64,000 bases of DNA from Mesotoga sp. Brook.08.105.5.1 (lineage in GTDB: Bacteria; Thermotogota; Thermotogae; Petrotogales; Kosmotogaceae). The position numbers and the translations under genes were made by a program. The stretch lies in NCBI RefSeq assembly GCF_002752635.1, contig NZ_AYTW01000016.1, positions 1-64,000 of the forward strand, read 5' to 3'. Positions 47,076-62,229 of the stretch are shown here, piece after piece; position 1 is the first letter of the stretch; each line of letters opens with the position of its first letter. The notes beneath the pieces were generated by a model that did not search any database, was not told the origin of the DNA, and was given only the letters and a program-made list of their open reading frames with translations.

Positions 47076-47483
47076 CAAAACCCTCCAGAAAGAGATTTTT
47101 GGTTTCCATGGTAGCACGCATGAGATGAGTCTGCAGAATTTCCATAAACATAACAATGCGGGTAATTAACTGGATCGAAAGCTAATGAAAGCAGAGAATT
47201 AAACAAGAATGCATTTGCCGATTGGCTTATCACACATCAATTAACTATGAAGTGATAATCGAACGTAGTTGCGCTACATTGGAGATCATCTTGACAGATC
47301 ATGGTTTGTCAGAGATTGAAGAGATGGTAGAATAAGTTTGTAAACGATAAGGATTACGTACTTATTTTATTGTTTGTTTCTATATTCTTCGGCAGCCTTC
47401 AAGAGTATCGTTTTGGGTCTATTATTTGCCAGAATGGGTAGTCTGTATATTAGTTCAATAGTTTTAAAAGGAGGGTGTTTTTT
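47076..47483. promoter_or_regulatory. Spacer upstream of the peptide-system cluster
   Basis: 408 nt, no gene seen. A TTGCCA (47426-47431) with TATTAG (47448-47453, 16-bp spacing) is a possible weak promoter for the 47484 gene. AAAGGAGGG (47468-47476) is its ribosome site. Another TTGACA is at 47291-47296 without a matching -10. Confidence 0.3.
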
Positions 47484-48074
47484 GTGAGAAAGATTATCCT
47501 GGGATTTCTAGTAATGCTGATTTTAGTTTTGCCGTGCTCTGCCCTTTTCTCAGTGGAGACTGAGATGCCGGTCGTTCAGCCACCTATGGTTGTAACCACT
47601 ATGGGGCAGAGTCCGGGTGCTTTGATGTTCAGACTGGTGTGTACAAGAAGCCAGATCGCCTGTGTTCAGGAGGATCTCTTGACTGCCGAACAGCTTTCCG
47701 AGATGGCGGCAGGAGAAAATGCTCCAAAGACATTGGTTATAACCACAGGAACGAGCCTCAAAGGAATGGGAGCCGCCGGTATTGATATGAATTTCGAGGT
47801 TAAAAGGGTTGAAGCTCTTATTTCTAAGGCTAAAGAACTCGGAATGACAATTATTGGTGCACACATTGAGGGGATGGCGCGCCGTGTAGATTCTACTGAC
47901 GAAAGGTCGATAAATACAGTCATTCCAAAATCCGATTTGATTCTTGTCATCGCTGACAGCGATTCAGATGGTTTCTTCACGAACTACTCTGAAAAGAATG
48001 GAATACCTCTGATCAAGGTGAAGGAATCGTTGGACATCGGTCCCGCTCTAAAAGAGCTGTTTGAGTCGGAGTGA
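47484..48074 (+). CDS. DUF6305-like exported protein, copy 1
   Basis: 196 aa from GTG 47484 (8 nt after AAAGGAGGG). Signal peptide ~1-21. Mature protein begins with the family-type VVTTMGQSPGALMFRLVCTR. The centre, TTGTSLKGMGAAGIDMNFEV, and helix VEALISKAKELGMTIIGAHI suggest a Rossmann-like alpha/beta fold. DLILVIADSDSDGFFT holds a DxDxDG loop like calcium-binding loops. Similar to the proteins at 58197 and, more distantly, 54448 in this window. It directly precedes a DctM/IT-type permease, so I infer it is an extracytoplasmic partner, perhaps the solute receptor. Not biochemically defined. Confidence 0.7.
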   Translation: MRKIILGFLVMLILVLPCSALFSVETEMPVVQPPMVVTTMGQSPGALMFRLVCTRSQIACVQEDLLTAEQLSEMAAGENAPKTLVITTGTSLKGMGAAGIDMNFEVKRVEALISKAKELGMTIIGAHIEGMARRVDSTDERSINTVIPKSDLILVIADSDSDGFFTNYSEKNGIPLIKVKESLDIGPALKELFESE

Positions 48075-48131
48075 AACAATGAATCATTTTGCAATCGACC
48101 TCATGGTCGGTTCTGAAGGGGGAGTGTCCTG

Positions 48132-49424
48132 GTGTACTTCCACGCTGGTCTAATACTTGCCGTAATTGCCGTCTCTTTCGGGATTGCAAAGGCACTTAAA
48201 CTTAGTGTTGAACTCTCGATGTTAGTTGCTGCAATCGCAGCGGCCATTGTACATTCTGGTGGAGCTATTCCCGTTCGTCATCTGGTTGAAGGCTCTTTCA
48301 CTTATCTTGATGTCTGTTTGATCTTTATCACTGCTACTTTCTTCATGAATCTGATAAAGGAGTCCGGGGGAGTCGCCTTTCTGGTAAGGCGTATAGTTAC
48401 TGCCTTCCACAAGAGCAGAGCGCTCTGCCTTTTCTTCCTGACTCTTCTCCTGTTAATTCCCGGTGCTTTGACTGGTTCTGGTGCTACCACAGTGCTCACG
48501 GTCGGTACGCTGGTTGGGACAGTTCTCACCTACATGGGAATATCTGAGAAACGAGTAGCAGCGATAATTTTCGTTTGTGCTGCAATGAGTGCCGCCGCAC
48601 CTCCTGTTAACCTCTGGGCGATGATGGCAGCCGCAGGTTCTAACATGCCTTATGTAGGCTTCTTCATTCCGCTCCTTGTCCTGTCGCTTGCGGGGTCTCT
48701 GTTTGCGATGTTCTTCTTGGGAGGAAAGGGCAAGCCTGTAGAGTTAGGAGAAGCTTTGAAGGAGCTGCCTGAACCGCCTGCGAAGATGAACTGGATAAGG
48801 GTAGGAATTCCCTTCGTGGTCCTAATATTCTTGATCATGGCGGGACGGATATGGCCCCACTCAATTCCTACGCTGGGGTTGCCTTTCATGTTCGTTGTAG
48901 CATCTGTATTTGCGATTCTCCTCAGTCCCAAGAAGTTGGAGATTCTAAAAATAGCGACAAACACTATAAACACTTTGATCCCTCTTGTAGGAATCATGAT
49001 AGTTGTGGGTATTTTGATACAGATAATGGCTTTGAGTGGCGCAAGAGGGTTGATCTCTCTGGCCGTAGTGACACTGCCTATGTGGGTTCTGTTTGCTGCA
49101 CTCTGGCTAATATTGCCTGTTTCTGAAGGGTTGCTCCAATACGCGGTTGCACCGCTTCTCGGAGTTCCCCTTATACTTTTGTTCAACATGAAAGGTATGG
49201 ACGCAATAATCGCTCTTTCTGCAATGGCAGTAATGTGGCCAGTGGGAGATATTCTTCCCCCTACTGCAGTTGTTGGAAGGGCAACGGTTATGGAGCTCAA
49301 GTTCAAGGGTCACTACTATAAGGATTTCTTGAAGACTTCGCTTGTTCCAATGGGGTTTATTCTGCTGATCACTACACTGTTCTTGATCTTCAGTAATGAA
49401 CTTTCCTTCTTGGTTGGCGGGTGA
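48132..49424 (+). CDS. TRAP-like large permease (DctM/IT superfamily), copy 1
   Basis: 430 aa, GTG 48132 after GGGGGAGTG. About 12 helices in two inverted halves. First half: FMNLIKESGGVAFLVRRIVT, LIPGALTGSGATTVLTVGTL, SAAAPPVNLWAMMAAAGSNM (substrate-site PP motif). Second half: LILPVSEGLLQYAVAPLLGV and AVMWPVGDILPPTAVVGRAT. Its twin is at 58894. No DctP receptor or normal DctQ subunit is beside it; instead a DUF6305-like protein precedes it and a 54-aa membrane protein follows. Likely an ion-coupled importer of small organic anions, amino acids or dipeptides, by context. Confidence 0.8.
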   Translation: MYFHAGLILAVIAVSFGIAKALKLSVELSMLVAAIAAAIVHSGGAIPVRHLVEGSFTYLDVCLIFITATFFMNLIKESGGVAFLVRRIVTAFHKSRALCLFFLTLLLLIPGALTGSGATTVLTVGTLVGTVLTYMGISEKRVAAIIFVCAAMSAAAPPVNLWAMMAAAGSNMPYVGFFIPLLVLSLAGSLFAMFFLGGKGKPVELGEALKELPEPPAKMNWIRVGIPFVVLIFLIMAGRIWPHSIPTLGLPFMFVVASVFAILLSPKKLEILKIATNTINTLIPLVGIMIVVGILIQIMALSGARGLISLAVVTLPMWVLFAALWLILPVSEGLLQYAVAPLLGVPLILLFNMKGMDAIIALSAMAVMWPVGDILPPTAVVGRATVMELKFKGHYYKDFLKTSLVPMGFILLITTLFLIFSNELSFLVGG

Positions 49425-49451
49425 TGTCATGGCCGAAAGGAAGTGTTGTTA

Positions 49452-49616
49452 ATGGCTGTTCTTTATACAATAATCAGTGTCTGTTACTACTTGATAATCG
49501 CTTTTGTAGTTTTCGTTATAGCTAGAAACCTGATCAAGACCAAGAATTTTCAGGAGGCAATCCTCTTTTCTGTCATGTTAATGCCATTCATCCTGCGAAT
49601 CCTGAGAATCAAGTAG
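49452..49616 (+). CDS. Mini membrane protein (54 aa), copy 1
   Basis: ATG 49452, 54 codons, one long hydrophobic segment (residues ~4-24), then a basic stretch RNLIKTKNFQEAI, a second hydrophobic segment and the ending PFILRILRIK. The paralogue at 60214 has the same layout (NFIKTKDLKSEI, PLILRLLRMK) and the same place between permease and zinc hydrolase, which argues strongly that it is a real gene. Inferred to be a small subunit of the permease, perhaps in the role of DctQ. It starts 27 nt after the permease stop. Confidence 0.75.
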   Translation: MAVLYTIISVCYYLIIAFVVFVIARNLIKTKNFQEAILFSVMLMPFILRILRIK

Positions 49617-49627
49617 GGGGTGCTGGT

Positions 49628-50794
49628 ATGACTGACAGAAACCTGATGATTGTCAAAATAGTTTCAACTGCATTGGTCGGGATTGCCCTTATTATTGCGG
49701 GGATCGAGTTCTACAACCACAGAAACTTCCGGGAGCCAGTTGTAATTGGACCGGGGGTAACCAATGTGAAGACTCTTGGTGACTATTTTGCGCCCTTGAA
49801 AGGCACCATAAACGACACCAATATCTACATAATCGATAGTGGTGTACCCGGTGGAACGGCACTTGTGATTGGTAGATCTCATCCAGAGGAACCAGCGACG
49901 AATCTAGCCGCAAAGATATTAGTCGAGAACGCCATGCCAAGCAAGGGAAGGCTGATCGTAGCCATAACTGCAAACCAGAGTGGATCACGAGTTACCAGAC
50001 CGGGGGACGCATATCCCATGTATTACACGATCGAAACACCCTGGGGAGAGAGCAAATACCGAATGGGAGACAGATGGACAAGCCCTCTCGATTCGTGGCC
50101 GGATCCCGAGACGTACGTCCACTATCCAAGTGGTCAGCTTCTTGCCTACATGGACATTCGTAACTTCAACAGAACATGGCCAGGCAGGGAGAACGGAATG
50201 ATCACAGAACAGACTAACTACGCTTTCATGAATCTTATAAGGGAAGAAGGAGTTGACGTTTTCATCGACTTACATGAGGCCGAGCTTGAGTACCCTGTCA
50301 TAAGCACAATAGTTGCTCATCAGAAGGCCGCAGACATAGCGGGGCTGGCTTCCATGATTCTCACTTCTTCGGAATTCAGGATCGGGATGGAGTTCTCTCC
50401 TCCTAGCCTTCACGGACTCTCTCATAGAGAAGTGGGGGATCATTCGGACGCGATATCTCTTCTGTTCGAGACTCCCGAGCCTTTCCTGGACAGGGTTAGG
50501 GGAATCACGGATGAGGCGCTTCTGTTAACAGGTAAGGATGAATTTGTTATGACAGCCGGAAAGTACGGTCTGCTTTACGAGAAGATAGACGAGAAAGGTT
50601 GGCCAATCGATGTGAGAGTCGGCAGACACTGCTCCACGACTCTCATGGTTCTCGAGCTATGGAGCGATTTCAATCCAGGAAAGGAGGTACTTGTCGGAGG
50701 AGTTCCGAGATACGACGAGGTAGTTAGTAACGGTACCGGCTTCTATTTCCAGGATCCATCTAAAGCAAGTGCAAGTAAGATTTACTATGAATGA
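49628..50794 (+). CDS. Membrane-anchored zinc hydrolase, AstE/aspartoacylase-M14 type, copy 1
   Basis: 388 aa, ATG 49628 after GGGGGTG. N-terminal signal anchor (~9-27), catalytic part outside. The metal site is HPEE (His85, Glu88) in IGRSHPEEPATN plus His216 in VFIDLHEAE. The substrate motif NFNRTWPG (~179-186) corresponds to DLNRxFPG of the AstE/ASPA branch. SLLFETPEP supplies the probable catalytic Glu. So a metallo-carboxypeptidase or N-acyl-amino-acid hydrolase is expected. Twin at 60377. 12 nt after the mini membrane gene; same operon as the permease. Confidence 0.8.
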   Translation: MTDRNLMIVKIVSTALVGIALIIAGIEFYNHRNFREPVVIGPGVTNVKTLGDYFAPLKGTINDTNIYIIDSGVPGGTALVIGRSHPEEPATNLAAKILVENAMPSKGRLIVAITANQSGSRVTRPGDAYPMYYTIETPWGESKYRMGDRWTSPLDSWPDPETYVHYPSGQLLAYMDIRNFNRTWPGRENGMITEQTNYAFMNLIREEGVDVFIDLHEAELEYPVISTIVAHQKAADIAGLASMILTSSEFRIGMEFSPPSLHGLSHREVGDHSDAISLLFETPEPFLDRVRGITDEALLLTGKDEFVMTAGKYGLLYEKIDEKGWPIDVRVGRHCSTTLMVLELWSDFNPGKEVLVGGVPRYDEVVSNGTGFYFQDPSKASASKIYYE

Positions 50795-50849
50795 CCGGTA
50801 AAGCATCATTATTGTTGAGTTTTTTTCCTCAAAAGGGAGGGGTTTTTAG

Positions 50850-52415
50850 GTGAGAAAGATACTAGTAACGATTGTTCTTGTACTGTCAGTTTTCTACGCA
50901 AGTCTGATTGCCTGCACAGATATACTTGCTGGTAAGATGGCTACAATTGATGGTTCTGTTATCTGTTCGCAGACAGTTGACGGGACATATGATTCTAGGA
51001 TTCTGATACAGCCTGCAGCAGACCATGAACCGGGAAGCATGACACCTGTTTGGGAATGGATAGTTTACGCGGATAGAAGGCCACTCGAGAAACTGGGCGA
51101 AATTCCGCAGGTGGAGCATACTTACCAGTACTTCCTGACATCGTATCCTTTTGGCAACGAAAAGGGACTTCTTATGGGCGAGACAACCTTGGGAGGAGCA
51201 AGAGCAACTGCGAATAGTCCCGAAGCAATAATGACTGTTGAGCAGCTTCAGGCATTTGCACTACAACGTTGTACTACTGCAAGGGAAGCTATATTGCTTA
51301 TGGGGCAACTTGCCGAAGAGTATGGTTACCGCGAATCCTGCAATCTTGGGGAATGCATCACAATAGCCGATGGCAAGGAGGCATGGGTATTTGAAGTTTA
51401 CGGGGTAGGCCCTCTTTGGAAGCCAGGAGATGGTCCAGGAGCCGTATGGGCTGCCCAGCGTGTCCCCGATGAACATATTTCGGCTGTTGTCAACTACAGT
51501 ATGATTGGAGAAATAGATCCTGAGACAAAAAGACCGCCGGCCGTTCCAGAGGAAGACTTCTATATCTCCGATAATTATCTCGACACAGCCATCGAACTCG
51601 GTCTTTATGATCCCGCTAGTGGTGAACCGTTTGTCTGGAAGTATGTTTACGGAAACATCAAAGGTAAGTGGAGTTCCAGGCTCTGGAGGATTTTCAGCAC
51701 TTTGAATCCTTCCGGTAACTGGTCCTATGACAAGACTGATGACTATCCTTTCTCTGTGAAGCCTGATGAACTGGTTTCGGTATATGACATAATTGAGCTC
51801 TACAGAGATGTTATGACTGGTACACCTGGTGACATGGAAGCTAATGAAGCCTGGTTATATGAATACGGAGACGAGATAAGGAAGAGTGGGCTGGCATCGC
51901 CACAGCCAGGAAGTGAATTCAGAAATCTTCTTGGAATTCCGAGCGTAAGGAACATCGGTGTTCAGAGTACAAGCTGCTTCTTCATAAACCAAACGAGAGA
52001 CTGGTTGCCACCTGAGATTGGTGCGGTCTCGTGGTTTGGTCTTGGAAATTCCCACAAAGCAGTTGTTGTTCCTCTATTCTGTGCGACGACCAGCGTTCCT
52101 GAATCTTGGACCACAATAAACAGAGGGGACAGCAAGATCAACAGAGATGATGCTTTCTGGGCATTCTATACTGTCGACAGGTTATCCGGAGTCAGGTATC
52201 AGGACATGATGCCGAGAGTAGATGCTGTCAGAAAACCTCTTCAGGAAAGGATTTTCGAAGTCCAGCCAGCAATTGAGGCTACAGCACTTGAGCTTTACAA
52301 GACCGATAGGGATCTGGCAGTTGAATTCCTAACTAGCTACGTTTCCAGCTTGATGATCGAGGTAGAGGAAGCATATTGGGATCTAGCAGACTCTTTGATT
52401 CTTAGGCTTCCTTGA
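50850..52415 (+). CDS. Secreted C69-family dipeptidase 1
   Basis: 521 aa, GTG 50850 behind GGGAGGGG. The signal peptide ends LIAC; Cys22 begins the mature C69 sequence CTDILAGKMATIDGSVICSQ, so signal cleavage itself can create the N-terminal nucleophile. The family body follows: VEHTYQYFLTSYPFGNEKGL, MGETTLGG, LQRCTTAREAILLMGQLAEE, AWVFEVYGVGP and VWAAQRVPDEHISAVVNYS. It lacks the C-terminal GYPxWWLxAVGY block of its two relatives here. Ntn-hydrolase cutting dipeptides, outside the membrane. Confidence 0.92.
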   Translation: MRKILVTIVLVLSVFYASLIACTDILAGKMATIDGSVICSQTVDGTYDSRILIQPAADHEPGSMTPVWEWIVYADRRPLEKLGEIPQVEHTYQYFLTSYPFGNEKGLLMGETTLGGARATANSPEAIMTVEQLQAFALQRCTTAREAILLMGQLAEEYGYRESCNLGECITIADGKEAWVFEVYGVGPLWKPGDGPGAVWAAQRVPDEHISAVVNYSMIGEIDPETKRPPAVPEEDFYISDNYLDTAIELGLYDPASGEPFVWKYVYGNIKGKWSSRLWRIFSTLNPSGNWSYDKTDDYPFSVKPDELVSVYDIIELYRDVMTGTPGDMEANEAWLYEYGDEIRKSGLASPQPGSEFRNLLGIPSVRNIGVQSTSCFFINQTRDWLPPEIGAVSWFGLGNSHKAVVVPLFCATTSVPESWTTINRGDSKINRDDAFWAFYTVDRLSGVRYQDMMPRVDAVRKPLQERIFEVQPAIEATALELYKTDRDLAVEFLTSYVSSLMIEVEEAYWDLADSLILRLP

Positions 52416-52441
52416 TTTAAGTTAGTTCTGGAATATTTTCC

Positions 52442-52467
52442 GGGTCGGTCATAGACCGACCCCCATT
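52442..52467 (+). terminator. Hairpin terminator between dipeptidase genes 1 and 2
   Basis: GGGTCGGTC-ATA-GACCGACCC, a perfect 9-bp stem, then CCATTTT. The ribosome site of the next gene lies only 8-13 nt on, so it may be leaky or regulatory. Confidence 0.65.
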
Positions 52468-52489
52468 TTGTGAAAGGGGAGTGAAAGAA

Positions 52490-54085
52490 TTGCGACGTGT
52501 ACTTATTGTTTTGTTAGTGCTTTTTGTTGGATTTGGCGTAACCGCAATGGCATGCACCTCTATCCTGGTAGGAAAGGATGCATCGGTTGACGGTTCAACG
52601 ATGACCACACACACCTGTGATGGCAGCTACGATGCCAGAATTCAGATTATTCCCGGTGGAGTACATGAAGAGGGCGAGACCGTAAGCATTTACAAGGGTC
52701 TCTGTCAGGCGGGTATTCCCGGAAGGACTGTATCTTACGTGGGAGAAATACCTCAGGCACCGGTAACGTACACCTACTTCCACATAGGATATCCATTCAT
52801 GAACGAAAACCAGGTAATAATGGGAGAAACAACCTGGAGTGGTGAGAGAGCGCTTAGAAACTCTCAGGGATGGATGACAATCGAGCAGTTGCAGGTTCTC
52901 GGTCTTCAGAGAGCCACTACGGCGAGGGAAGCTATACAGGTAATGGGAGAACTAGCCGAGAAGTACGGATATGGCGATGGCGGCGAAGGACTAACAATTA
53001 TCGACGGAGAAGAGGCATGGCTCTTTGAGATCTGTGGTCCTGGACCCTTCTGGTCTCCTGGGAGCGAAGAACCCGGAGCGGTATGGGTTGCACAGAGAAT
53101 TCCGGACGATCATGTTCTCGTTCACGCCAACAGATCGAGGATTGGAGAAATCGATCTTGAGAACACCGACTACTTCATGGCCTCTCCAAATGTCTACTCA
53201 ACCGCTATCGATCTAGGACTGTGGGACGGAGAAGGGACTTTCCTCTTCTATGCAGCCTATGGGCCGAAGAATGCATTCTATAACACAAGACGAGAGTGGA
53301 GAGTACTGGATCTTCTAGCCCCATCACTTGAGCTTGATCCCTGGGCAGAGAGATACCCTCTGTCAGTCAAACCAGACAAGAAGGTTTCTGTTCACGATCT
53401 TATGATGATCAAGCGCGATCATTATGAAGGAACAGAATTCGATCTCACGGTTGGTCTTGCCGCGGGTCCTTTTGGCAATCCTAACAGATATGCGACCTCT
53501 TCCAGTCAAAGGCCAGAAGGTGTCAACTACGACGGTTGGGAAAGAGCAATCTCCATGTTCAGGTGTTCTTATGTAATCGTTGGACAGGCAAGAAACTGGA
53601 TGCCTGCTGAAATCGGTGGACTGGTATGGTTTGGCGAAGATGCGCCTCATTCAACTGTATACATTCCCTTCTACGCTGGCGCTACCAGTGTTCCCGAGTC
53701 ATTCAGTCAGGGAGCAAGGAATTTCTTCGACAGAAGTTCTGCATGGTGGGCATTCAACCACGTCTCTAACCTAGCCGATCTGAGATACAATGTCGCAATA
53801 GAGATTATCAAAGAGGAATACACGAAGTTTGAAACTGAGTTCCTCACGAATCAGCCACTGATCGAAAAGGTTGCGCTCGAACTTTACAAGAGCAGTCCAG
53901 AAGCAGCGATTGATTTCATCACGAACTACAGCAACGGTCTTGCTAATAGAGTTGTGGATAGATGGTGGAAACTCGCTGATGAACTGATCTACACATTGAA
54001 CGACGGTTATGTGAATGGTTCTACTGCAGGGTACCCAACCTGGTGGCTCGAAGCTGTTGGTTATGGAGATACAACCAGAAGATAG
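52490..54085 (+). CDS. Secreted C69-family dipeptidase 2
   Basis: 531 aa from TTG 52490, 8 nt after GGGGAG; this gives MRRVLIVLLVL, matching the other two signal peptides, and is preferred over GTG 52481. Cut at AMA/Cys22 yields CTSILVGKDASVDGSTMTTH. Core blocks: VTYTYFHIGYPFMNENQVIM, GLQRATTAREAIQVMGELAE, AWLFEICGPGPFWSPG, VWVAQRIPDDHVLVHANRS, and the C-terminal STAGYPTWWLEAVGY. Extracytoplasmic dipeptidase. The three copies in this cluster diverge enough to suggest different specificities. Confidence 0.92.
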   Translation: MRRVLIVLLVLFVGFGVTAMACTSILVGKDASVDGSTMTTHTCDGSYDARIQIIPGGVHEEGETVSIYKGLCQAGIPGRTVSYVGEIPQAPVTYTYFHIGYPFMNENQVIMGETTWSGERALRNSQGWMTIEQLQVLGLQRATTAREAIQVMGELAEKYGYGDGGEGLTIIDGEEAWLFEICGPGPFWSPGSEEPGAVWVAQRIPDDHVLVHANRSRIGEIDLENTDYFMASPNVYSTAIDLGLWDGEGTFLFYAAYGPKNAFYNTRREWRVLDLLAPSLELDPWAERYPLSVKPDKKVSVHDLMMIKRDHYEGTEFDLTVGLAAGPFGNPNRYATSSSQRPEGVNYDGWERAISMFRCSYVIVGQARNWMPAEIGGLVWFGEDAPHSTVYIPFYAGATSVPESFSQGARNFFDRSSAWWAFNHVSNLADLRYNVAIEIIKEEYTKFETEFLTNQPLIEKVALELYKSSPEAAIDFITNYSNGLANRVVDRWWKLADELIYTLNDGYVNGSTAGYPTWWLEAVGYGDTTRR

Positions 54086-54100
54086 TACTATTGTTCTATC

Positions 54101-54130
54101 GAAGGGCGGAGTAATCTTCGCCCTTCTTTT
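54101..54130 (+). terminator. Terminator after dipeptidase 2
   Basis: GAAGGGCG pairs with CGCCCTTC across a 10-nt loop, followed by TTTTC, 15 nt after the stop. Confidence 0.8.
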
Positions 54131-54447
54131 CTTGAAGCGTTCTTGATATCGTATGACTATAGACTCATTTGAAGTCGATTTCTCGATTCTTAAGCCGCGA
54201 CTGTGGTTCCATGTGGGACATGTCAATAAGTTGATGCAAGTGTTTAATGAGCCAGGAAGTCTTTTTGAAAGGGAATCTCACTCATGGAGTCAGAAACTAG
54301 AGCTTTTTCCTCCTATTTAAAACTTGTGTATCGATTGGAGCAAGCGGGCAAAATGGCATAAGGCTTTGCTATAATGATTATAAGAAAGTTTTACAACCTA
54401 ACTTAATGAGTTTTCCGTTCTTGGACTGATTATTATTTATTTTGGGG
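54131..54447 (+). promoter_or_regulatory. Spacer with extended -10 promoter for the DUF6305-2/propeller pair
   Basis: 317 nt without a gene. TGC-TATAAT at 54367-54375 is an extended -10 element; no clear -35 is needed or seen. It implies that a new transcript starts here, after the terminator at 54101-54130. Confidence 0.5.
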
Positions 54448-55071
54448 ATGGCACTGTTGAAAATTGCTACGGTTATGCTGATTCTTTTCGCTGGTTCAAT
54501 TCTTTGCTCTCTGACAGTCGAACCTTTGCCCGTTATTGAAGATCCTCTGTTAATGACAGTTTGGGGCGAGAGCATAGAACTTCAGAATATAACCTATTTT
54601 TGTGACAGTCTTCAGATTGCTCGTGACTATTCGCGGTTTGCGACAGTCGAAGATCTCGCTTCTGGTGCTGGATACAGGATTGGGAGAGAGCTACCCGACG
54701 AATTTTTCCATCCATTCTACGTTACCGGAACTCCATATCGTACTCTTGTTGTCATTGTTGGAGGCGCTGAACGGGGATCAGCAGAAGATATCATTAGAAT
54801 TGAGATGCTTGCCTCTTCAGTGAAGAGCTCTGGAGGAAAGGTTCTAGCAATAGACATCGATGTTGAAGGGATTGGAAACGATCCCGTAAAGGAAGAGTTC
54901 GTCCGAACAATCGTTCCGTTTCTAGATGTCCTTATAGTAGCCGAGAGCCCCACTGATCAATACTTGCCATATCTGAAAAGTGATACCCCTATATTGGTGG
55001 AGCTGCCAGTTGTTGTAGATCTCGTTTCAATCTTTGAAAGGGATTTCGGCGGCGGCAGGTGCTGTGACTAA
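54448..55071 (+). CDS. DUF6305-like exported protein, copy 2 (divergent)
   Basis: 207 aa if ATG 54448 is used; TTG 54457 (giving MKIATVMLILF) is equally possible. Signal peptide ~1-18, possibly cut before LTVEPLP. The family start LMTVWGESIELQNITYFCDS corresponds to the TxGQS segment of copies 1 and 3, with Q replaced by E. VVIVGGAERGSAEDIIRIEM, then KVLAIDIDVEGIGNDPVKEE and DVLIVAESPTDQYL, keep the fold order, but the DxDxDG loop is lost. It precedes the propeller gene by 11 nt, probably as an operon, and has no permease of its own. Confidence 0.65.
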   Translation: MALLKIATVMLILFAGSILCSLTVEPLPVIEDPLLMTVWGESIELQNITYFCDSLQIARDYSRFATVEDLASGAGYRIGRELPDEFFHPFYVTGTPYRTLVVIVGGAERGSAEDIIRIEMLASSVKSSGGKVLAIDIDVEGIGNDPVKEEFVRTIVPFLDVLIVAESPTDQYLPYLKSDTPILVELPVVVDLVSIFERDFGGGRCCD

Positions 55072-55082
55072 CAGGAGGATTA

Positions 55083-56357
55083 ATGAAGAGAGTATTTTTG
55101 TTAGCCGTTATTATGTTAAGCGCACTTACATTTTCAGAGATTAGTGTTGAGTATTCGATTGCTTACGGAGGAGAAGGCGATGACGTTGCAAACGGTCTGG
55201 TTTTGCTCAAAGACGGAAGTATTCTGATTGCAGGATATACAACTTCGACTACCGGAGATCTCGGGACTTCAAAAGGGGAAGAGGATTTTCTCGTAGTGAA
55301 AATGGACGGCTCTTTTGAAGTGTTGTGGTCTAGAACTTTCGGTGGTAGTGATTCTGATGTTGCAGAAGCGATAGCTGAGACAAGAGACGGCGGCTTCATC
55401 GTTGTTGGCATGACAGAATCATCAGACGGCGATGTTTCCGTGAGTAACAAGCTTGGAGATTTCTGGATAATCAAGCTTTCCTCGGAAGGTGAACTACTCT
55501 GGGAGAAGACATTCGGGGGAAGTGGCCAGGACCATGCTTACGATGTTGTTGAGAGGCCCTCGGGAAATGTGGTCGTTGCAGGCTACACGAGATCGGTAGA
55601 TGGAGATGTTCGAGGACATGTATGGGGAGAAGATTTCTGGATAATTGAGATCGCTTCTACAGGAGAGCTTCTGAAGCAGTGGACAATAGATGGAGAAAAC
55701 AACAACGAAGATCTTGCTCGAAAGCTAACGATTACTGACATAGGCGAGATACTGGCTGTAGGCTATACGACCTACAAAGACGTAGGAATTAGCTGTAATT
55801 ACGTTAACGAACAGGCTGCACTTGCGGTCATCGATAATGAAGGAGTCCTTTCTTCCTATAAGAGTTACGGTGGTATGTATCTCGAAGATGGTTACGATGT
55901 GATGATTTTTGAGGACACAATAATCATTGTTGGTGAACAGGATGCTGGAGTATCTATGTTTTCCAGCGGACTCGGAGGGAAAGACTTCTACGTTGTAACA
56001 GTAGACAGAGCTGGGCAAGAAATCTGGGCGAAGAATTATGGAGGAACCTTTACAGATATAGCACGCGTGGTTCAGCGATTCGGGAACGGACACTTTCTTG
56101 TTGCAGGTCACACAACTTCACAGAATGTTGACGTCAAAGATCCTCTAGGTATGAACGATGGGTGGATAATTGTAATAAAGGAAAACGGTGAGCTTGTCGA
56201 ATCATTATCGGTAGGTGGATCGGCAGACGATCTAATTCTTTCGGGTGTCAGTTCAGATGAAAAGCATATTTTCTGTGGTTATTCAACATCATCTGACGGA
56301 GACGTAGAAAGCAACAAGGGCGGAAAAGATATTTGGTTGATTTCGTTAGGAAAATAG
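55083..56357 (+). CDS. Secreted seven-repeat beta-propeller (delta-60/SBBP-like)
   Basis: 424 aa, ATG 55083 behind AACAGGAGG. Signal peptide ~1-18. Seven repeats of ~55 residues each start near a (F/Y/I/V)GG or DGE block: YGGEGDDVANG, FGGSDSDVAEA, FGGSGQDHAYD, IDGENNNEDLA, YGGMYLEDGYD, YGGTFTDIARV, VGGSADDLIL. The full unit is GG..DDA.....DGG.I..G.T.S..GDV....G..DFWI.K....GE..W.K.F. Seven units should close one propeller. Binding function outside the cell is likely; no catalytic motif seen. Follows DUF6305 copy 2. Confidence 0.8.
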   Translation: MKRVFLLAVIMLSALTFSEISVEYSIAYGGEGDDVANGLVLLKDGSILIAGYTTSTTGDLGTSKGEEDFLVVKMDGSFEVLWSRTFGGSDSDVAEAIAETRDGGFIVVGMTESSDGDVSVSNKLGDFWIIKLSSEGELLWEKTFGGSGQDHAYDVVERPSGNVVVAGYTRSVDGDVRGHVWGEDFWIIEIASTGELLKQWTIDGENNNEDLARKLTITDIGEILAVGYTTYKDVGISCNYVNEQAALAVIDNEGVLSSYKSYGGMYLEDGYDVMIFEDTIIIVGEQDAGVSMFSSGLGGKDFYVVTVDRAGQEIWAKNYGGTFTDIARVVQRFGNGHFLVAGHTTSQNVDVKDPLGMNDGWIIVIKENGELVESLSVGGSADDLILSGVSSDEKHIFCGYSTSSDGDVESNKGGKDIWLISLGK

Positions 56358-56421
56358 ATGAGGTCTAGCGACCTTAAACTGGGGTATATCCCCAATAAAA
56401 TCTAGTTGGGAGGGGTTTCAT

Positions 56422-58083
56422 TTGCGTAAGATCCTATTGGTCCTGATTGTGGCTGCTGCAATAGTCAGTATTGGCCTTGCATGTACCACAATCATCGTTA
56501 CTAAGGGTGCGTCTGTTGACGGTTCAGTAATGACGAGCCATTCAGCTGACTGTGGCCTCTGTGATTTCAGGTACGTCTATGTTCCACCCGCAGATTATGA
56601 AGCGGGAGCAAAGAGAGCAGTATATCCTTTCATCGAGCCATATCCACGTTATGTCGGTGCAGATATGGGTCCGACCTACAACGATCCAGACCTTCCGGCA
56701 ACAGAGCCTCTGGGTTACATCGATCAGGTCGAGCACACATTTGGCTACTTTGATGCAGTTTATGGCGTAATCAATGAACATCAGCTGGCAATCGGTGAAT
56801 GTACATGTTCTGCGAAGGTCTATGCGCAGCCAAGTGCAGATTGTATTTTCGATGTTGCTGCTCTTTCGAGAGTTGCAATGGAGAGAACTACCACAGCCCG
56901 AGAAGCAATAGAACTCATGGGTGCGCTTGCCGTTGAGTACGGTTACTACGGTTGGGGAGAAACACTGACAGTAACAGACCCAAACGAAGCCTGGGTCTTC
57001 GAAATCTGTGCATCGCCAGACAAGAAGAGTGCACTTTGGGCGGCGAAGAAGGTTCCAGATGGAGAAGTCTTCGTAGAATCGAACATGTTCAGGATAAGAG
57101 AACTCGATCCTGAAAGCCCTGACAATATGTTCTCGCCGAATCTTATCGATGTTGCAACAGAAGCCGGCTGGTACGATCCCAGCACAGGTCCTATCGACTG
57201 GATGGCGACTGTTAGTACAGGCGAGTACTCTATGCCTTACTACAGTCTGAGAAGAACATGGAGAGTTCTCGACAGAGTCTCTCCATCTCTTGGACTTTCT
57301 CCCTGGGTAGAAGACAGTTTTACAAAAGACTACCCATTCTCTATCGTACCTGACAAGAAACTGTCGGTTGCAGATGTTATTGATCTCTTCAGAGATCACT
57401 ACGAAGGAACAGAATTCGATCTTACTGAAGGGCTTGCAGCAGGTCCATTCGGCAATCCTAATCGCTATGCCGGTTCCAGTAAGCTAATAAAGGGAAGCTG
57501 GGAAAGAGCCCTTTCTATCTTCAGATGTGAGTACGTTTTCGTCACTCAGTCGAGAGACTGGCTTCCTGATCCTGTCGGTGGAGTAGTATGGTGGGGAGCA
57601 GCTGCACCTCACGAAACGATTCTTGTGCCGATGTACTGTGGAATAACGGACGTTCCTTATGCTTATGACAGTGGTAGCCTTCAGGAATTCGACTATAATG
57701 TCGCATCTTGGGCATTCAACTTCATGGGCAACTGGGCAGAACTGAAGTGGAGTTACATGTATCCGGAGATTCAGGAACTTCAGAAGAAGATAGAAGGAAA
57801 GCTCTTTGCAGTACAGCCAGCGATTGAAGCGGCAGCTGCACAGCTTTACGAAACAGATCCAGAACTATGTAAGGAATTCCTTACTGATTACGTTGCCGAC
57901 GTTACCGACAGAGTAATGGCGGAGGTTTGGGATTTCAACGAATATCTAATAACCAAGTACAGAGACGGATACATCAACATCCCGAACGTTGGTTCTTCAG
58001 CTGGATACCCCGACTGGTGGCTTGATGCAGTAGGATACGACGAAGGTCACATTTTCGGCGACGACGCTTACAAACCTAAATGA
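56422..58083 (+). CDS. Secreted C69-family dipeptidase 3
   Basis: 553 aa, TTG 56422 after GGGAGGGG. Signal peptide ends GLA/Cys21, then CTTIIVTKGASVDGSVMTSH. A 20-residue longer N-terminal region contains CGLC, an extra cysteine pair, near residue 50. Core: VEHTFGYFDAVYGVINEHQL, GECTCSAKVYAQPS, AMERTTTAREAIELMGALAV, AWVFEICASPDKKSALWAAK. C-terminus SSAGYPDWWLDAVGY. Extracytoplasmic dipeptidase; nearest of the three to the second permease module. Confidence 0.92.
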   Translation: MRKILLVLIVAAAIVSIGLACTTIIVTKGASVDGSVMTSHSADCGLCDFRYVYVPPADYEAGAKRAVYPFIEPYPRYVGADMGPTYNDPDLPATEPLGYIDQVEHTFGYFDAVYGVINEHQLAIGECTCSAKVYAQPSADCIFDVAALSRVAMERTTTAREAIELMGALAVEYGYYGWGETLTVTDPNEAWVFEICASPDKKSALWAAKKVPDGEVFVESNMFRIRELDPESPDNMFSPNLIDVATEAGWYDPSTGPIDWMATVSTGEYSMPYYSLRRTWRVLDRVSPSLGLSPWVEDSFTKDYPFSIVPDKKLSVADVIDLFRDHYEGTEFDLTEGLAAGPFGNPNRYAGSSKLIKGSWERALSIFRCEYVFVTQSRDWLPDPVGGVVWWGAAAPHETILVPMYCGITDVPYAYDSGSLQEFDYNVASWAFNFMGNWAELKWSYMYPEIQELQKKIEGKLFAVQPAIEAAAAQLYETDPELCKEFLTDYVADVTDRVMAEVWDFNEYLITKYRDGYINIPNVGSSAGYPDWWLDAVGYDEGHIFGDDAYKPK

Positions 58084-58091
58084 TAGTCCTG

Positions 58092-58119
58092 GCCTGCCCC
58101 TTTCGGGGCAGGCTTTCTT
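58092..58119 (+). terminator. Terminator after dipeptidase 3
   Basis: GCCTGCCCC-TTTC-GGGGCAGGC followed by TTTCTT, 8 nt after the stop. Confidence 0.85.
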
Positions 58120-58196
58120 CGATAATTTCGGACTTTGTATACAATATTTGTTTCAAATAAATGAGTCGAATAGAGCAGAAAGAAGGAGGTAGTTTC

Positions 58197-58832
58197 ATGA
58201 AGAAAGCAATTCTCGTTATGATTATTGTTTCTGTTGTCGGTGCACTTGCCTTCTCGGCTACAGAAGTCTCACTGGCACTTCCTGTTGTAATCACTTCAGC
58301 CGGTCAGAGTACGGAAGTTGAGACGGTGACTTATGTTGCCGACGAAGTAGGTTTGAAGTACGATTATTGCGACATTCTCTCCAAAGATGAGCTAGCTGCC
58401 GGAGTAGGCCTTGGTGGAGCTGTGTCGGCTATTGGAAAACACGTGACCACGCTTTCCCCTGATCCCAAAGGGACGAAGTTTCAGTCAATGATCCTGGTTC
58501 TTGGTGCGAGTCTCAAAGGTATGGGAGCGTCGGGATTGTCTGTAGAATCGGAAGTTTCAAGGCTCAAGGCACTCATCGATTACGCAAAGGCGAACGAGAT
58601 CGCAATAATTGCCGTGGCAATCGGCGGTTCAGTTCAGAGGGGTCTTCCTGGTAGTCCGATCGAGGTAATGATTGACACAGTAGCTCCCTTTGCAGACATC
58701 TTCATCGTGACAAAGGACTCAAACAAGGACGGCAGATTCACGAATGCCGCTTCAGAAAGAAATGTGCCAATAGTGGAGATTGATTCAGCTTTCGATCTTC
58801 TCGACACATTCACAGAAGTCTTCGGGTTGTAG
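58197..58832 (+). CDS. DUF6305-like exported protein, copy 3
   Basis: 211 aa from ATG 58197, set by AAGGAGGT just upstream. Signal peptide ~1-20 (cut after AFSA). VVITSAGQSTEVETVTYVAD is the family start; LGASLKGMGASGLSVESEVS and LKALIDYAKANEIAIIAVAI match copy 1 closely; DIFIVTKDSNKDGRFT contains the DxDxDG-like loop. Position and spacing relative to the next permease mirror copy 1 (61 nt here, 57 nt there). Inferred extracytoplasmic partner of the permease. Confidence 0.7.
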   Translation: MKKAILVMIIVSVVGALAFSATEVSLALPVVITSAGQSTEVETVTYVADEVGLKYDYCDILSKDELAAGVGLGGAVSAIGKHVTTLSPDPKGTKFQSMILVLGASLKGMGASGLSVESEVSRLKALIDYAKANEIAIIAVAIGGSVQRGLPGSPIEVMIDTVAPFADIFIVTKDSNKDGRFTNAASERNVPIVEIDSAFDLLDTFTEVFGL

Positions 58833-58893
58833 TTGATTGGATGCGGCGCGATCGTGATGATTGTGCCGCGTTCATTATAAGGGGGTAATCACG

Positions 58894-60198
58894 TTGTCAG
58901 CTGATGCAATATATATGCAAACGATCATAGCCGGGCTAGTCATGGTTGGAGCCTACGCCGTTGGAAAGTTCCTGAAGTTTTCAACGGAACTATGTATGTT
59001 TGTTGCAGTAATCGGGGGAGCAATTGCCGGAGGAGCAGGTTTTGACACTTTCAGGCATATAGCCGAAGGATCTGTAACTTACCTCGACATTGGACTTATC
59101 TTCGTATTTGCGACGATTTTCATGAATATTATCAAAGAGTCGGGTGGAACGAATTATATCGTCAGGAAGATAATTGGAGCTTTCCATAACAAAAGAGTCC
59201 TGATGCTGATACTACTGATGCTTGTAATTCTAGTTCCGGGAGCGCTTACCGGAGCAGGGAGTATCTCCGTTCTAGTTGTGGGGGGTACGGTAGCAGCAGC
59301 CCTTAACGCGATGGGACTTTCAAAGGTCAGGATTTCGGCGCTAATCTTCATAATTGCGGGTTTGAGCGCTGCTGCTCCGCCAGTCAACATCTGGGCAATG
59401 ATGACTTGTGCGGGAACAGCAATACCTTATGTGGGGTTCACAATGCCTCTTCTTGTACCGATCTTGATTCTGGCGCTGTTTTCTGTCCTGTTCTTTGGAC
59501 GTGGTGCAAAGAACATAGACAAAGAAAAGGCACTAAAAGAGATTCCCGATCCCAAAGGGCTCTCCGGGTGGAGTGTTGCTGTTCCTTTCCTTGTCTTGAT
59601 ATTCCTGCTCGGGGCCCCCAGAATCTGGCCGTTCGGATTCCCGGTTCTCGGATTGCCTCTAGTCTTTGCAATCTGTGCGTTAGTTGCTTGGCTAATGAAC
59701 TTCAAGAGAGTGAATATTCTGAAGGTCAGCAAAGAGACCGTTGCCCAATTAACACCCCTGATAGCAACCACCGCAGTTGTGGGAATGCTGATCCAGGTCA
59801 TGAGTTTCAATGGTGTGAAGGGTTTGATCTCAATGTGGATTGTTACGGCTCCTCTGGCTATAGTCTGGATACTCCTTCCCTTCATAATACCGATATCGGA
59901 AGGTCTCCTTACATATGGTGGTGCGATGGTAATAGGAATACCGCTTATCTGGATGTTGAATTCAAACGGAATAAACCCGGTAATTGTTTTGGCAGGATTA
60001 AGCCTTCTATGGCCTCTTGGAGATGGACTACCCCCAACTGCGCTGATAGGGAGGTTGACAGTGAGTACGGTTGGCTATAAAGGTTCTTACGGCTCGTTCT
60101 TGAAAGAGTGTGTAGTGCCCTGGATAGCCATAACCGCAGTTGCTATGATACTGATTATCTTCGCCAACAAATTCAACTTCCTGATGATGGTAGGTTGA
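58894..60198 (+). CDS. TRAP-like large permease (DctM/IT superfamily), copy 2
   Basis: 434 aa from TTG 58894 after AAGGGGGTAA; the frame upstream of it is not family-like. About 12 helices. NIIKESGGTNYIVRKIIGAF, LVPGALTGAGSISVLVVGGT, SAAAPPVNIWAMMTCAGTAI in the first half; FIIPISEGLLTYGGAMVIGI and SLLWPLGDGLPPTALIGRLT in the second. The order of motifs is identical to the permease at 48132. Both halves keep the PP loops that line the substrate site in this superfamily. Confidence 0.8.
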   Translation: MSADAIYMQTIIAGLVMVGAYAVGKFLKFSTELCMFVAVIGGAIAGGAGFDTFRHIAEGSVTYLDIGLIFVFATIFMNIIKESGGTNYIVRKIIGAFHNKRVLMLILLMLVILVPGALTGAGSISVLVVGGTVAAALNAMGLSKVRISALIFIIAGLSAAAPPVNIWAMMTCAGTAIPYVGFTMPLLVPILILALFSVLFFGRGAKNIDKEKALKEIPDPKGLSGWSVAVPFLVLIFLLGAPRIWPFGFPVLGLPLVFAICALVAWLMNFKRVNILKVSKETVAQLTPLIATTAVVGMLIQVMSFNGVKGLISMWIVTAPLAIVWILLPFIIPISEGLLTYGGAMVIGIPLIWMLNSNGINPVIVLAGLSLLWPLGDGLPPTALIGRLTVSTVGYKGSYGSFLKECVVPWIAITAVAMILIIFANKFNFLMMVG

Positions 60199-60213
60199 GG
60201 AGGAGGTGTCGTC

Positions 60214-60366
60214 ATGACTTTGATAATGTTTCTGTATTATGTGATGACAGCCTATGTGGCAGGCATGCTAATATGGAACTTCATTAAGACCAAGGATTTA
60301 AAGAGCGAGATACTCTATACTTTGGCTCTTCTACCCCTCATTCTCAGACTGCTGAGAATGAAGTAG
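60214..60366 (+). CDS. Mini membrane protein (50 aa), copy 2
   Basis: ATG 60214 follows AGGAGGAGGTG, a very strong ribosome site. 50 codons: hydrophobic segment ~1-21, then IWNFIKTKDLKSEI, second hydrophobic segment, ending PLILRLLRMK. Shares layout and the KTK and LRxxRxK motifs with the 54-aa protein at 49452. It lies 15 nt after the permease stop and 10 nt before the hydrolase start, so it is certainly co-transcribed. Proposed small permease subunit. Confidence 0.8.
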   Translation: MTLIMFLYYVMTAYVAGMLIWNFIKTKDLKSEILYTLALLPLILRLLRMK

Positions 60367-60376
60367 GGGTGGTTTT

Positions 60377-61525
60377 ATGATGAGAAAACTTATAATCGCT
60401 GGTGTACTTGCACTTATAGTTCTGGCTGGAGGAATACCACTGTACGTTCAGAGGTACTTCAAGGAAGAAGTAGTGGCCGGACCAAGTGTGACTAACGTTT
60501 TTAAACTTAGCAAGTACTTTGACGGAATAGAAGGAACGATTGCAGATACCGATGTTTTTGAACTGAAGGGCGCAGAAGAAGGCGGGAAGACTCTCATAAT
60601 AGCGGGGACCCATGCCAATGAACCTTCCGCGACTTTACTCGCATATTTTTTCATCGGGAATCTCGAAGTGGAAAAGGGAACAGTCTACGTTATTCCCCAT
60701 TTCAATGTTAGCGGTTCTCTTGGAACACAGCCAGGTGGAGGATTTCCTCTCTACTACTATCTGGAAACTCCATGGGGAGAACAGAAGTTCAGAATGGGCG
60801 ACAGAGGGTTCCAGGCACTTGACCAGTGGCCAGACCCGGACGTCTATGTACACTATCCTGATGGTCAGCTTTTGTCGTACATAGACGCAAGAAATACAAA
60901 TCGATCCTGGCCAGGCAGGCCTGACGGATTCCTTGCTGAGAAAGTCTCCTTTGCAGCAATGGAGATGATCCGTAATGAGGGTATAGATATCGTTATTGAT
61001 TTGCATGAAGCAGAGGCGATGTACCCTGTGACCAACTGCATAGTTGCCCCTGAGAAGTCAATGCCCTATGCAATAGGAGCTTCCTTCTATGTGAAGGGAA
61101 GAGAGAAGTTTGATAATCACGTGGAGTCTTCTCCAACCGGTTACAGAGGCCTCTCACACAGGGAAATTGGCGATTGGTCCGACGCATACCCGTTCTTACT
61201 GGAGTCACCCGGAGTCCATCTTGATCAGATTACGGCTGCCAAAACTCTAGAACTGATTATCGATGGTATAGACCCATTTGTGTTGAAGGCTGGTGAAAAG
61301 GGATTGCTTTTCGTCCCGTACGACGAGAACGGATTCTCTATGGACAGAAGAGTCGGACAGCATTCTTCAGTTATTCAAGAGATTCTGTCTCAGTGGACGA
61401 AGAAGAACCCCGACAGAGGATTCTCGGTTTCCGCCCCAAGATACGCCGAAATAGTCGAAAATGAACTTGGATACTACTTCAAGGACCCTGCTGAAGCAGA
61501 TTCAAGAAAGGTATACTACCAATAG
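60377..61525 (+). CDS. Membrane-anchored zinc hydrolase, AstE/aspartoacylase-M14 type, copy 2
   Basis: 382 aa, ATG 60377 (ATG 60380 also possible) after GGGGTGG. Signal anchor ~5-22. Metal site His79 and Glu82 in IAGTHANEPSAT, the canonical HxxE, and His210 in IVIDLHEAEAMYP. NTNRSWPG matches DLNRxFPG; PFLLESPGVH has the probable catalytic Glu. Clear twin of the protein at 49628, with the same C-terminal ending (YYFKDPAEADSRKVYYQ here). Extracytoplasmic deacylase or carboxypeptidase, feeding the adjacent permease by inference. Confidence 0.82.
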   Translation: MMRKLIIAGVLALIVLAGGIPLYVQRYFKEEVVAGPSVTNVFKLSKYFDGIEGTIADTDVFELKGAEEGGKTLIIAGTHANEPSATLLAYFFIGNLEVEKGTVYVIPHFNVSGSLGTQPGGGFPLYYYLETPWGEQKFRMGDRGFQALDQWPDPDVYVHYPDGQLLSYIDARNTNRSWPGRPDGFLAEKVSFAAMEMIRNEGIDIVIDLHEAEAMYPVTNCIVAPEKSMPYAIGASFYVKGREKFDNHVESSPTGYRGLSHREIGDWSDAYPFLLESPGVHLDQITAAKTLELIIDGIDPFVLKAGEKGLLFVPYDENGFSMDRRVGQHSSVIQEILSQWTKKNPDRGFSVSAPRYAEIVENELGYYFKDPAEADSRKVYYQ

Positions 61526-61543
61526 AATATCTTTCTGCATAGG

Positions 61544-61578
61544 AAAAGTGCATACGGGTTTTGCGTATGCACTTTTTT
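61544..61578. terminator. Bidirectional terminator between zinc hydrolase and HAD genes
   Basis: AAAAGTGCATACG pairs with CGTATGCACTTTT around a 7-nt loop, with A and T tracts on both sides. It sits exactly between two convergent genes. Confidence 0.85.
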
Positions 61579-61584
61579 CATTTG

Positions 61585-62229
61585 CTATACATGTGAGGAA
61601 TGGCCGTCATCAGAAACAATCTTTTCAAGCTGTAACAGATTGTCTATTGTGAAGTCGACTCGAATGGTTGGTCTGGATCCATTCTGAGAGAAGAAACATG
61701 TCTTTGTTCCCGCATCCCTTGCAGCAATGACGTCAAGGTCTCTATCACCAATGGAGAGAGTTGATCTGGGGTTCAGTCTATAATTTCTTATCGCGCTGAC
61801 GAAAGCATCGGGGTCTGGTTTCCTCTTAAATCCGCTTTCTCTGGTGATTATGTCGCTGAAAAGCGAGGTCATTTCGTAGTAACTTAGCAGCTTGAAAGCA
61901 GTCTTTCGTGATCTATGAGTTATGATCAGATTCTTACCGCCATTCCTTACAAGTATTGAGCACACCTCGCGAGCACCTTCAAAAGGAGGTTGCTCGGCCG
62001 GGTCGAGCTCTTCTTCAGATTTCTTGAAGTCTTTGTAGAAGGCATAGTCAACTCCTCTATCCAAATAGAAGTCAACGGCCTTTCCGAGGGTGTCTTTCAT
62101 GAGGGAGAGAATTTCGTTTTCGGAAGCGACATATCCCTTTCTAAGCAGAGCCTGTTTAAACAGTCTGACCATAGCGGGGTAGGTATTGAAAAGCGAACCG
62201 TCGAAATCCCATATCAGATTCTCGATCAT
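61585..62229 (-). CDS. HAD-superfamily phosphatase A
   Basis: 214 aa. Motif I IWDFDGSLFNTYPAMVRLF, cap domain of the IA (PGP-like) kind, motif II KNLIITHRSRKTAFKLL, motif III lysine in ESGFKRKPDPDAFVSAI, motif IV TLSIGDRDLDVIAARDAG. All catalytic positions are present, so an active small-molecule phosphatase is expected; the substrate is unknown. ATG 62229 overlaps the upstream stop by one base (TGATG). Paralogue of the next gene. Confidence 0.88.
   Translation of the reverse strand: MIENLIWDFDGSLFNTYPAMVRLFKQALLRKGYVASENEILSLMKDTLGKAVDFYLDRGVDYAFYKDFKKSEEELDPAEQPPFEGAREVCSILVRNGGKNLIITHRSRKTAFKLLSYYEMTSLFSDIITRESGFKRKPDPDAFVSAIRNYRLNPRSTLSIGDRDLDVIAARDAGTKTCFFSQNGSRPTIRVDFTIDNLLQLEKIVSDDGHSSHV

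What the first reader, a model, noticed from the sequence alone, without database searches (positions are those of the whole stretch)
47484..61525. Duplicated module: DUF6305-like protein, IT-superfamily permease, mini membrane protein and zinc hydrolase, with three secreted C69 dipeptidases
Seen: the order DUF6305-like - 12-TM permease - 50/54-aa membrane protein - AstE/M14-like anchored hydrolase occurs twice (47484-50794 and 58197-61525), with matching gaps and motifs. Between the copies are three C69 dipeptidases, a third DUF6305-like gene and a propeller. Known: C69 enzymes are dipeptidases and IT/DctM permeases import small organic solutes. Inferred: an extracytoplasmic system that cuts peptides or N-acyl amino acids and imports the products, using novel partners in place of DctP/DctQ. 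I know of no description of such a unit.
Basis: partly seen in the sequence, partly recalled or inferred. Interest (0 to 1): 0.85.

Follow-up and report, generated by a model that had tools for sequence, protein, structure and literature searches.

The report
Polyglutamate-linked uptake cassette with microprotein
Two neighbouring bacterial gene sets each encode the same four-part extracellular cutting-and-uptake unit, and across about ten phyla this unit, including an undescribed 50-amino-acid membrane protein, travels with the enzymes that make poly-gamma-glutamate, so it is probably machinery by which anaerobes break down and take back that polymer or similar glutamate compounds.

Summary
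The window (Mesotoga-like, Thermotogota) holds two adjacent operons, each with DUF6305, a TRAP-M-like permease, a 50-57 aa two-helix membrane protein and a membrane-anchored AstE/AspA-type zinc hydrolase. Three secreted C69 peptidases lie with them. In 80 loci fetched from public genomes with the permease alone, all 84 permeases are followed by the small protein and then the hydrolase, and 64 of 68 with room have DUF6305 nearby. Two permease clades differ strictly in the peptidase: C69 with one, gamma-glutamyltransferase (GGT) with the other.

Most longer loci also carry the poly-gamma-glutamate synthase PgsB/PgsC, TIGR04332 and a two-component system. TIGR04332 occurs in 47 of 50 permease genomes. 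In 103 Thermotogota genomes all 17 TIGR04332 genomes are among the 19 with the permease. The window's own genome has a PgsBC-TIGR04332 operon. Glutamate 2,3-aminomutase and glutamate-racemase-like genes also adjoin some loci.

Best reading: a system that trims gamma-glutamyl polymers or peptides outside the cell and imports glutamate or short pieces, without recognisable DctP/DctQ. Substrate and direction of transport are inferred. No held paper describes it.

The parts
47475..48074 (+). DUF6305 protein, copy 1 (signal peptide, Rossmann-like extracytoplasmic domain)
   Evidence: PF19823 172 bits; AF2 model pLDDT 94; invariant G44,G92,K96,G97,A100,E108,R111,G133
48132..49424 (+). TRAP-M-like permease, copy 1
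   Evidence: weak DctM match, 17.9 bits, below cut-off; family profile's only PDB match is isethionate TRAP DctMQ 9pym, E 3e-4; tree
49443..49616 (+). two-helix membrane microprotein, copy 1 (ATG at 49452 gives 54 aa)
   Evidence: no Pfam/NCBIfam match; homologue after every one of 84 permeases; invariant Y and R, end IPLxLRxLxIK
49628..50794 (+). membrane-anchored AstE/AspA-type zinc hydrolase, copy 1
   Evidence: Zn and carboxylate-site residues kept: H85xxE88, N181R182, H216, E281; nearest PDB AstE/DoeB-type enzymes, 1e-11 to 1e-7
50850..52415 (+). secreted C69 peptidase 1 (Cys expected at mature N-terminus)
   Evidence: PF03577 165 bits; AC at end of signal peptide
52481..54085 (+). secreted C69 peptidase 2
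   Evidence: PF03577 242 bits
54101..54126 (+). terminator-like hairpin ending operon A
   Evidence: 11-bp stem and T tract
54442..55071 (+). degenerate third DUF6305 paralogue
   Evidence: 36 bits; KGxGAAG and RR motifs lost; kept at the same place in another genome of the genus, L144
55083..56357 (+). SBBP/delta-60-type beta-propeller, secreted
   Evidence: NF047494 42 bits, TIGR02608 33 bits, both below cut-off
56422..58083 (+). secreted C69 peptidase 3
   Evidence: PF03577 183 bits
58161..58832 (+). DUF6305 protein, copy 2
   Evidence: PF19823 144 bits
58861..60198 (+). TRAP-M-like permease, copy 2
   Evidence: CitMHS 22 bits, below cut-off; 46% identical to copy 1; separate subclade
60214..60366 (+). 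two-helix membrane microprotein, copy 2 (50 aa)
   Evidence: mostly synonymous changes against close relatives
60377..61525 (+). membrane-anchored AstE/AspA-type zinc hydrolase, copy 2
   Evidence: PF24827 31 bits, cut-off 25; H79xxE82, N175R176, D208LH210E211, E276 invariant in 47 sequences
61542..61578 (+). terminator-like hairpin ending operon B
   Evidence: 15-bp stem and T tract

Best explanation
The unit is an extracytoplasmic turnover-and-uptake system for gamma-linked glutamate compounds (poly-gamma-glutamate or gamma-glutamyl peptides). Outside the cytoplasmic membrane an Ntn peptidase (GGT in most lineages, C69 in the lineage of this window) and a membrane-anchored AstE/AspA-type zinc hydrolase cut the polymer or peptide. 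DUF6305 binds the anionic product. A TRAP-M-like secondary permease, with a 50-aa two-helix microprotein as obligate small subunit, imports the product (glutamate or a short oligomer). In most carriers the same genome, often the same operon, encodes PgsB/PgsC and TIGR04332, which make a gamma-glutamyl polymer, and a histidine kinase/response regulator that probably senses the pool. Shown: gene families, order, co-occurrence, catalytic residues, partition of C69 and GGT. Inferred: substrate, import direction, subunit role of the microprotein, ligand binding by DUF6305.
For: 84/84 permeases followed by microprotein and hydrolase; DUF6305 near 64/68 with room; Pgs genes beside 31/40 permeases with 5 kb on both sides. 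PgsB, PgsC and TIGR04332 pass NCBIfam cut-offs in L064 (377, 139, 352 bits). Own genome has PgsC-PgsB-TIGR04332 (95 bits, just under cut-off; 244; 353 bits). TIGR04332 in 47/50 permease genomes but in only 3 of 391 Clostridia, all three of them permease genomes. In 103 Thermotogota all 17 TIGR04332 genomes are among the 19 with the permease. Glutamate 2,3-aminomutase next to the module in L052 (689 bits), with same-cluster neighbours in L053 and L054; glutamate-racemase-like genes in 5 loci. Hydrolase keeps the AstE/AspA Zn and carboxylate-binding residues. Both GGT and a Zn carboxypeptidase-like enzyme are reported to degrade poly-gamma-glutamate (PMC4497714). Natural DUF6305-AstE fusion in Halanaerobium, just 5' of HK-RR.
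Against: No substrate or transport test exists. In this genome the module is not next to PgsBC, and C69 enzymes are known for ordinary alpha-dipeptides. 3/50 permease genomes showed no TIGR04332 (one is a likely mis-binned contig, one a MAG, one an isolate). DUF6305 also occurs without permease or Pgs, next to a kinase/regulator pair, so it is not specific to transport. Many loci are MAG contigs.
Confidence: 0.6

Rival explanations
1. General dipeptide or N-acyl amino acid scavenging: C69 and AstE-like enzymes release amino acids from exogenous peptides or N-acyl amino acids, and the permease imports them; the PgsBC link is secondary.
For: C69 is a dipeptidase family; the nearest solved relatives of the hydrolase are N-acetyl-diaminobutyrate deacetylases and AstE-like enzymes; in the window's genome the modules stand apart from PgsBC.
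Against: TIGR04332/PgsBC co-occurrence is near obligate. In most lineages the partner is GGT, a gamma-glutamyl enzyme. Glutamate aminomutase and racemase-like genes adjoin some loci.
Confidence: 0.2
2. Envelope polymer assembly or export: the permease, microprotein and DUF6305 export or anchor a PgsBC-made polymer, and GGT/C69/AstE trim or attach it; no nutrient uptake.
For: Linkage to PgsBC and GGT; a GGT-family enzyme is known to anchor such a polymer (PMC4497714); PgsE, a known stimulator of the synthase, shows that accessory proteins of this kind exist (PMC3815933).
Against: The permease belongs with TRAP-M, whose known members are importers (importer role from general knowledge). Three intact modules lie away from PgsBC in this genome. 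Several hydrolases per locus suggest degradation.
Confidence: 0.15
3. Sensing module: DUF6305 and its kinase are a ligand-sensing pair and the permease/hydrolase serve mainly as co-sensors.
For: In 14 of 16 Clostridia loci without the module DUF6305 is followed at once by the same kinase family, and the other two contigs end just after DUF6305; HK near 27 of 40 permeases with room.
Against: The window has no kinase beside either copy, and the permease-microprotein-hydrolase core is never broken up where the permease is found.
Confidence: 0.05

Closest known systems
TRAP transporters (DctPQM / SiaPQM; fused DctMQ)
   Same: Permease is a distant DctM relative: the own-genome third permease passes Pfam DctM (45.9 vs 23.8 bits) and the only PDB match is TRAP DctMQ 9pym.
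   Different: The window's two permeases fall below the DctM cut-off. No DctQ or DctP family listed among neighbours of the 80 loci; a two-helix 50-aa protein follows the permease instead, and DUF6305 (no match to a binding-protein fold) stands where a binding protein would.
Poly-gamma-glutamate synthesis PgsBCA(E) / CapBCADE
   Same: PgsB, PgsC and a GGT-family enzyme are encoded with or near the module.
   Different: TIGR04332 stands where PgsA usually is. A CapA-family gene is absent or unlinked: 5 of 20 genomes had no match, and the own genome has one weak distant match. The permease, microprotein, DUF6305 and anchored AstE-like hydrolase are not part of the described system.
NCBIfam TIGR04332 'poly-gamma-glutamate system protein'
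   Same: Curators had already named a PgsBC-linked family; it is part of this system.
   Different: No paper in the library uses the accession, and none describes the transport/hydrolase cassette.
AstE/AspA deacylases and phage PghP zinc poly-gamma-glutamate hydrolase
   Same: Zn-hydrolase family and active site; PghP is a carboxypeptidase-like PGA hydrolase (PMC4497714).
   Different: Anchored to the membrane, distant in sequence, always just 3' of the microprotein.

Membership tests
TRAP transporter | DctM-type large permease subunit | tested here: inconclusive
   Window copies below Pfam cut-off; other family members above it; profile finds TRAP DctMQ in PDB, E 3e-4
TRAP transporter | DctQ small subunit (4 TM) encoded beside or fused | tested here: not met
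   No DctQ among the families listed for 115 other ORFs within 4 kb (88 families with single matches beyond the first 25 were not shown); microprotein has only two short hydrophobic stretches
TRAP transporter | DctP or TAXI binding protein | tested here: not met
   None among the listed neighbour families (same limit); DUF6305 model matches no binding protein, best TM-score about 0.44
PgsBC(A) poly-gamma-glutamate system | PgsB ligase and PgsC | tested here: met
   TIGR04012 244 bits in own genome (cut-off 222.7); TIGR04011 95.2 bits, just under cut-off 96.45; both over cut-off in L064
PgsBC(A) poly-gamma-glutamate system | PgsA/CapA | tested here: not met
   Own genome: one weak distant PF09587 match (27 bits); none in 5 of 20 genomes; not in the loci
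AstE/AspA hydrolase | HxxE...H zinc site, NR carboxylate site, catalytic Glu | tested here: met
   All invariant in 47 sequences; roles of the residues from general knowledge of the family
AstE/AspA hydrolase | activity on N-acyl amino acids | not testable with these tools
   needs enzyme assay
Peptidase C69 | C69 domain with N-terminal Cys after processing | tested here: met
   PF03577 165-242 bits; invariant ACT at the signal peptide end; below the NCBIfam dipeptidase equivalog cut-off
DUF6305 (PF19823) | Pfam cut-off 25 bits | tested here: met
   172, 144 and 36 bits

The most novel reading that the evidence does not exclude
A widespread, undescribed polyglutamate cycle in anaerobes: PgsBC-TIGR04332 deposit gamma-glutamyl polymer, and a dedicated importer of a new TRAP-like architecture (M-like permease, obligate 50-aa two-helix subunit, DUF6305 in place of the binding protein) takes the hydrolysed glutamate back, with GGT and C69 as interchangeable Ntn partners.
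Probability: 0.45. Interest if true: 0.88.

Novelty: new variant of a known kind. Interest (0 to 1): 0.74.

Why it matters
Poly-gamma-glutamate is known mainly as a capsule of Bacillus and relatives; how other bacteria degrade and re-use it, and why anaerobes from Thermotogota to Clostridia, Spirochaetota and Fusobacteriota carry PgsBC, is open. This cassette gives a testable answer. It also suggests functions for three families without any: DUF6305, TIGR04332 and a previously unlisted 50-aa membrane protein that was never seen apart from its permease. If the microprotein is a subunit, it is a minimal alternative to DctQ.

Tried and rejected
Recent tandem duplication: rejected by the permease tree. 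DUF6305 as a distant copy of TIGR04332: no profile similarity. DUF6305 as SGNH hydrolase or dihydropteroate synthase: weak matches only (TM-score under 0.45; E about 0.01), and the Ser after strand 1 is not invariant (58/65). TIGR04332 fold search: no PDB match of value. Microprotein in Pfam/NCBIfam: nothing convincing. CapA as part of the system: not linked. 'Thorarchaeota' carrier L055: 97% identical to the window permease, most likely a mis-binned Mesotoga contig, so not counted as an archaeal occurrence.
Full report
What is in the window. Between 47475 and 61525 all genes run on the + strand with short gaps. Pfam places three DUF6305 proteins, three Peptidase_C69, two AstE/AspA-like hydrolases (one below cut-off) and two permeases with only weak DctM or CitMHS matches; the 57- and 50-aa proteins match nothing convincing. 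The copies are 46% (permease), 45% (hydrolase) and 33% (DUF6305) identical. Strong terminator-like hairpins at 54101-54126 and 61542-61578 and a promoter-like site at 47306-47333 suggest two operons, 47475-54085 and 54442-61525 (consensus matches only). Another genome of the genus keeps the whole 14-kb block (L144).

The rest of the genome. There is a third intact module on contig C56, where GGT replaces C69 and a second AstE-like gene precedes it. A broken copy lies on C21 (DUF6305 interrupted by TAG, hydrolase cut short), and a lone DUF6305 on C23. On C14 lie PgsC, PgsB and TIGR04332 in one operon, beside an OPT-like transporter gene (the OPT name is my reading of the sequence).

Other genomes. 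A scan of GTDB contigs with the permease alone gave 80 loci in Bacillota, Spirochaetota, Thermotogota, Fusobacteriota, Synergistota, Atribacterota, Aminicenantes, KSB1, Neomarinimicrobiota and others. Gene clustering and six-frame profile searches gave: 84 of 84 permeases followed by the microprotein (median gap 25 bases between profile matches) and then the hydrolase (median 19); DUF6305 within 5 kb of 64 of 68 with at least 1.5 kb on each side; PgsB/PgsC/TIGR04332 in the locus of 31 of 40 with 5 kb on each side; histidine kinase near 27 and a second AstE-like hydrolase near 28 of those 40. GGT occurs only with one hydrolase/permease clade (58 of 67), C69 only with the other (14 of 17), with no mixture (Fisher p 3e-15, not corrected for relatedness). 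The window's clade is the C69 one. The richest C69-type loci, in Halanaerobium and a Halanaerobiales MAG, read PgsB-PgsC-TIGR04332-[DUF6305 fused or joined to AstE]-HK-RR-DUF6305-permease-microprotein-hydrolase-C69.

Genome-wide association. TIGR04332 is present in 47 of 50 genomes chosen for the permease; my choice of loci leaned towards those without Pgs genes in view, so this is not inflated. In 391 Clostridia drawn evenly it occurs in three, all three of which are permease genomes already in my set. In all 103 held Thermotogota: permease 19, TIGR04332 17, both 17; the two permease-only genomes are drafts of 420 and 640 contigs, one of which does have PgsB. By genus the DUF6305 and TIGR04332 sets coincide, 7 of 38.

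Glutamate context. The gene after C69 in L052 is glutamate 2,3-aminomutase above its equivalog cut-off; L053 and L054 carry a gene of the same cluster. Glutamate-racemase-like genes, some with lipoprotein-like signals, adjoin in five loci. Clostridium tetanomorphum and C. symbiosum, carriers here, are glutamate fermenters (my knowledge). GGT removes single units from poly-gamma-glutamate and the Zn enzyme PghP cleaves it (PMC4497714); Fusobacterium nucleatum makes the polymer (PMC3815933), and its relatives Cetobacterium carry the module.

Molecular features. The hydrolase keeps every AstE/AspA active-site residue. DUF6305 gives a confident single-domain alpha/beta model without a close solved relative; its invariant residues include K96 and R111, and nearly always R136, R137 and H130, which would suit an anionic ligand (inference). 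DUF6305 has a second life: in 14 of 16 Clostridia loci without the module it is followed at once by a kinase of the same family, and the other two contigs end just behind it. This suggests a ligand-binding partner used for both transport and sensing. TIGR04332 gives a confident model (pLDDT 95.6) with no solved counterpart. The microprotein has an invariant Tyr in helix 1 and Arg in its C-terminal IPLxLRxLxIK end.

Mechanism and its limits. Shown: composition, order, conservation, catalytic residues, association with PgsBC. Inferred: cutting of gamma-glutamyl substrates, import of glutamate or short oligomers, DUF6305 as binding partner, microprotein as permease subunit. The substrate could still be another peptide, and the system might serve assembly rather than uptake; tests that separate these are listed. 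No paper found in the library names DUF6305, TIGR04332, a Mesotoga polyglutamate or a TRAP-like polyglutamate transporter (the single paper only holds the annotation phrase, in a Francisella study); subscription journals are mostly not in that library.

Noticed in passing
L154-L169 (Clostridia): DUF6305 in another constant context: DUF6305, histidine kinase and response regulator, in two loci read in full between an oligopeptide-binding-like protein and an ABC transporter with a Bmp-like lipoprotein; no permease, no Pgs.
   Followed up: partly
L052:5528-6775, also L053, L054: Glutamate 2,3-aminomutase directly after the C69 gene; suggests a link to beta-glutamate, a known osmolyte.
   Followed up: partly
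L087, L090, L106, L108, L111: Glutamate-racemase-like genes in the loci, some with a lipoprotein-like N-terminus, i.e. possibly acting outside the cytoplasm.
   Followed up: partly
L098, L105, L107, L117, L125: Tandem double modules (two very different permeases, each with microprotein and hydrolase) in Bacillota and Spirochaetota, parallel to the window's double arrangement.
   Followed up: partly
L007:91-1207 (G000:C21): Broken fourth module: DUF6305 frame interrupted by TAG, AstE-like gene truncated.
   Followed up: no
L134:10654-12276 (G000:C14): OPT-family-like oligopeptide transporter next to TIGR04332-PgsB-PgsC in the window's own genome.
   Followed up: no
window 61585-62882 (-): Two adjacent paralogous HAD-superfamily hydrolases next to the block.
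   Followed up: no
L055: A contig binned as Thorarchaeota is 97% identical to the window permease: likely mis-binned Mesotoga.
   Followed up: no
L134:9556-10593: TIGR04332: confident two-TM extracytoplasmic model with no match in the PDB; possibly a new fold arrangement.
   Followed up: partly
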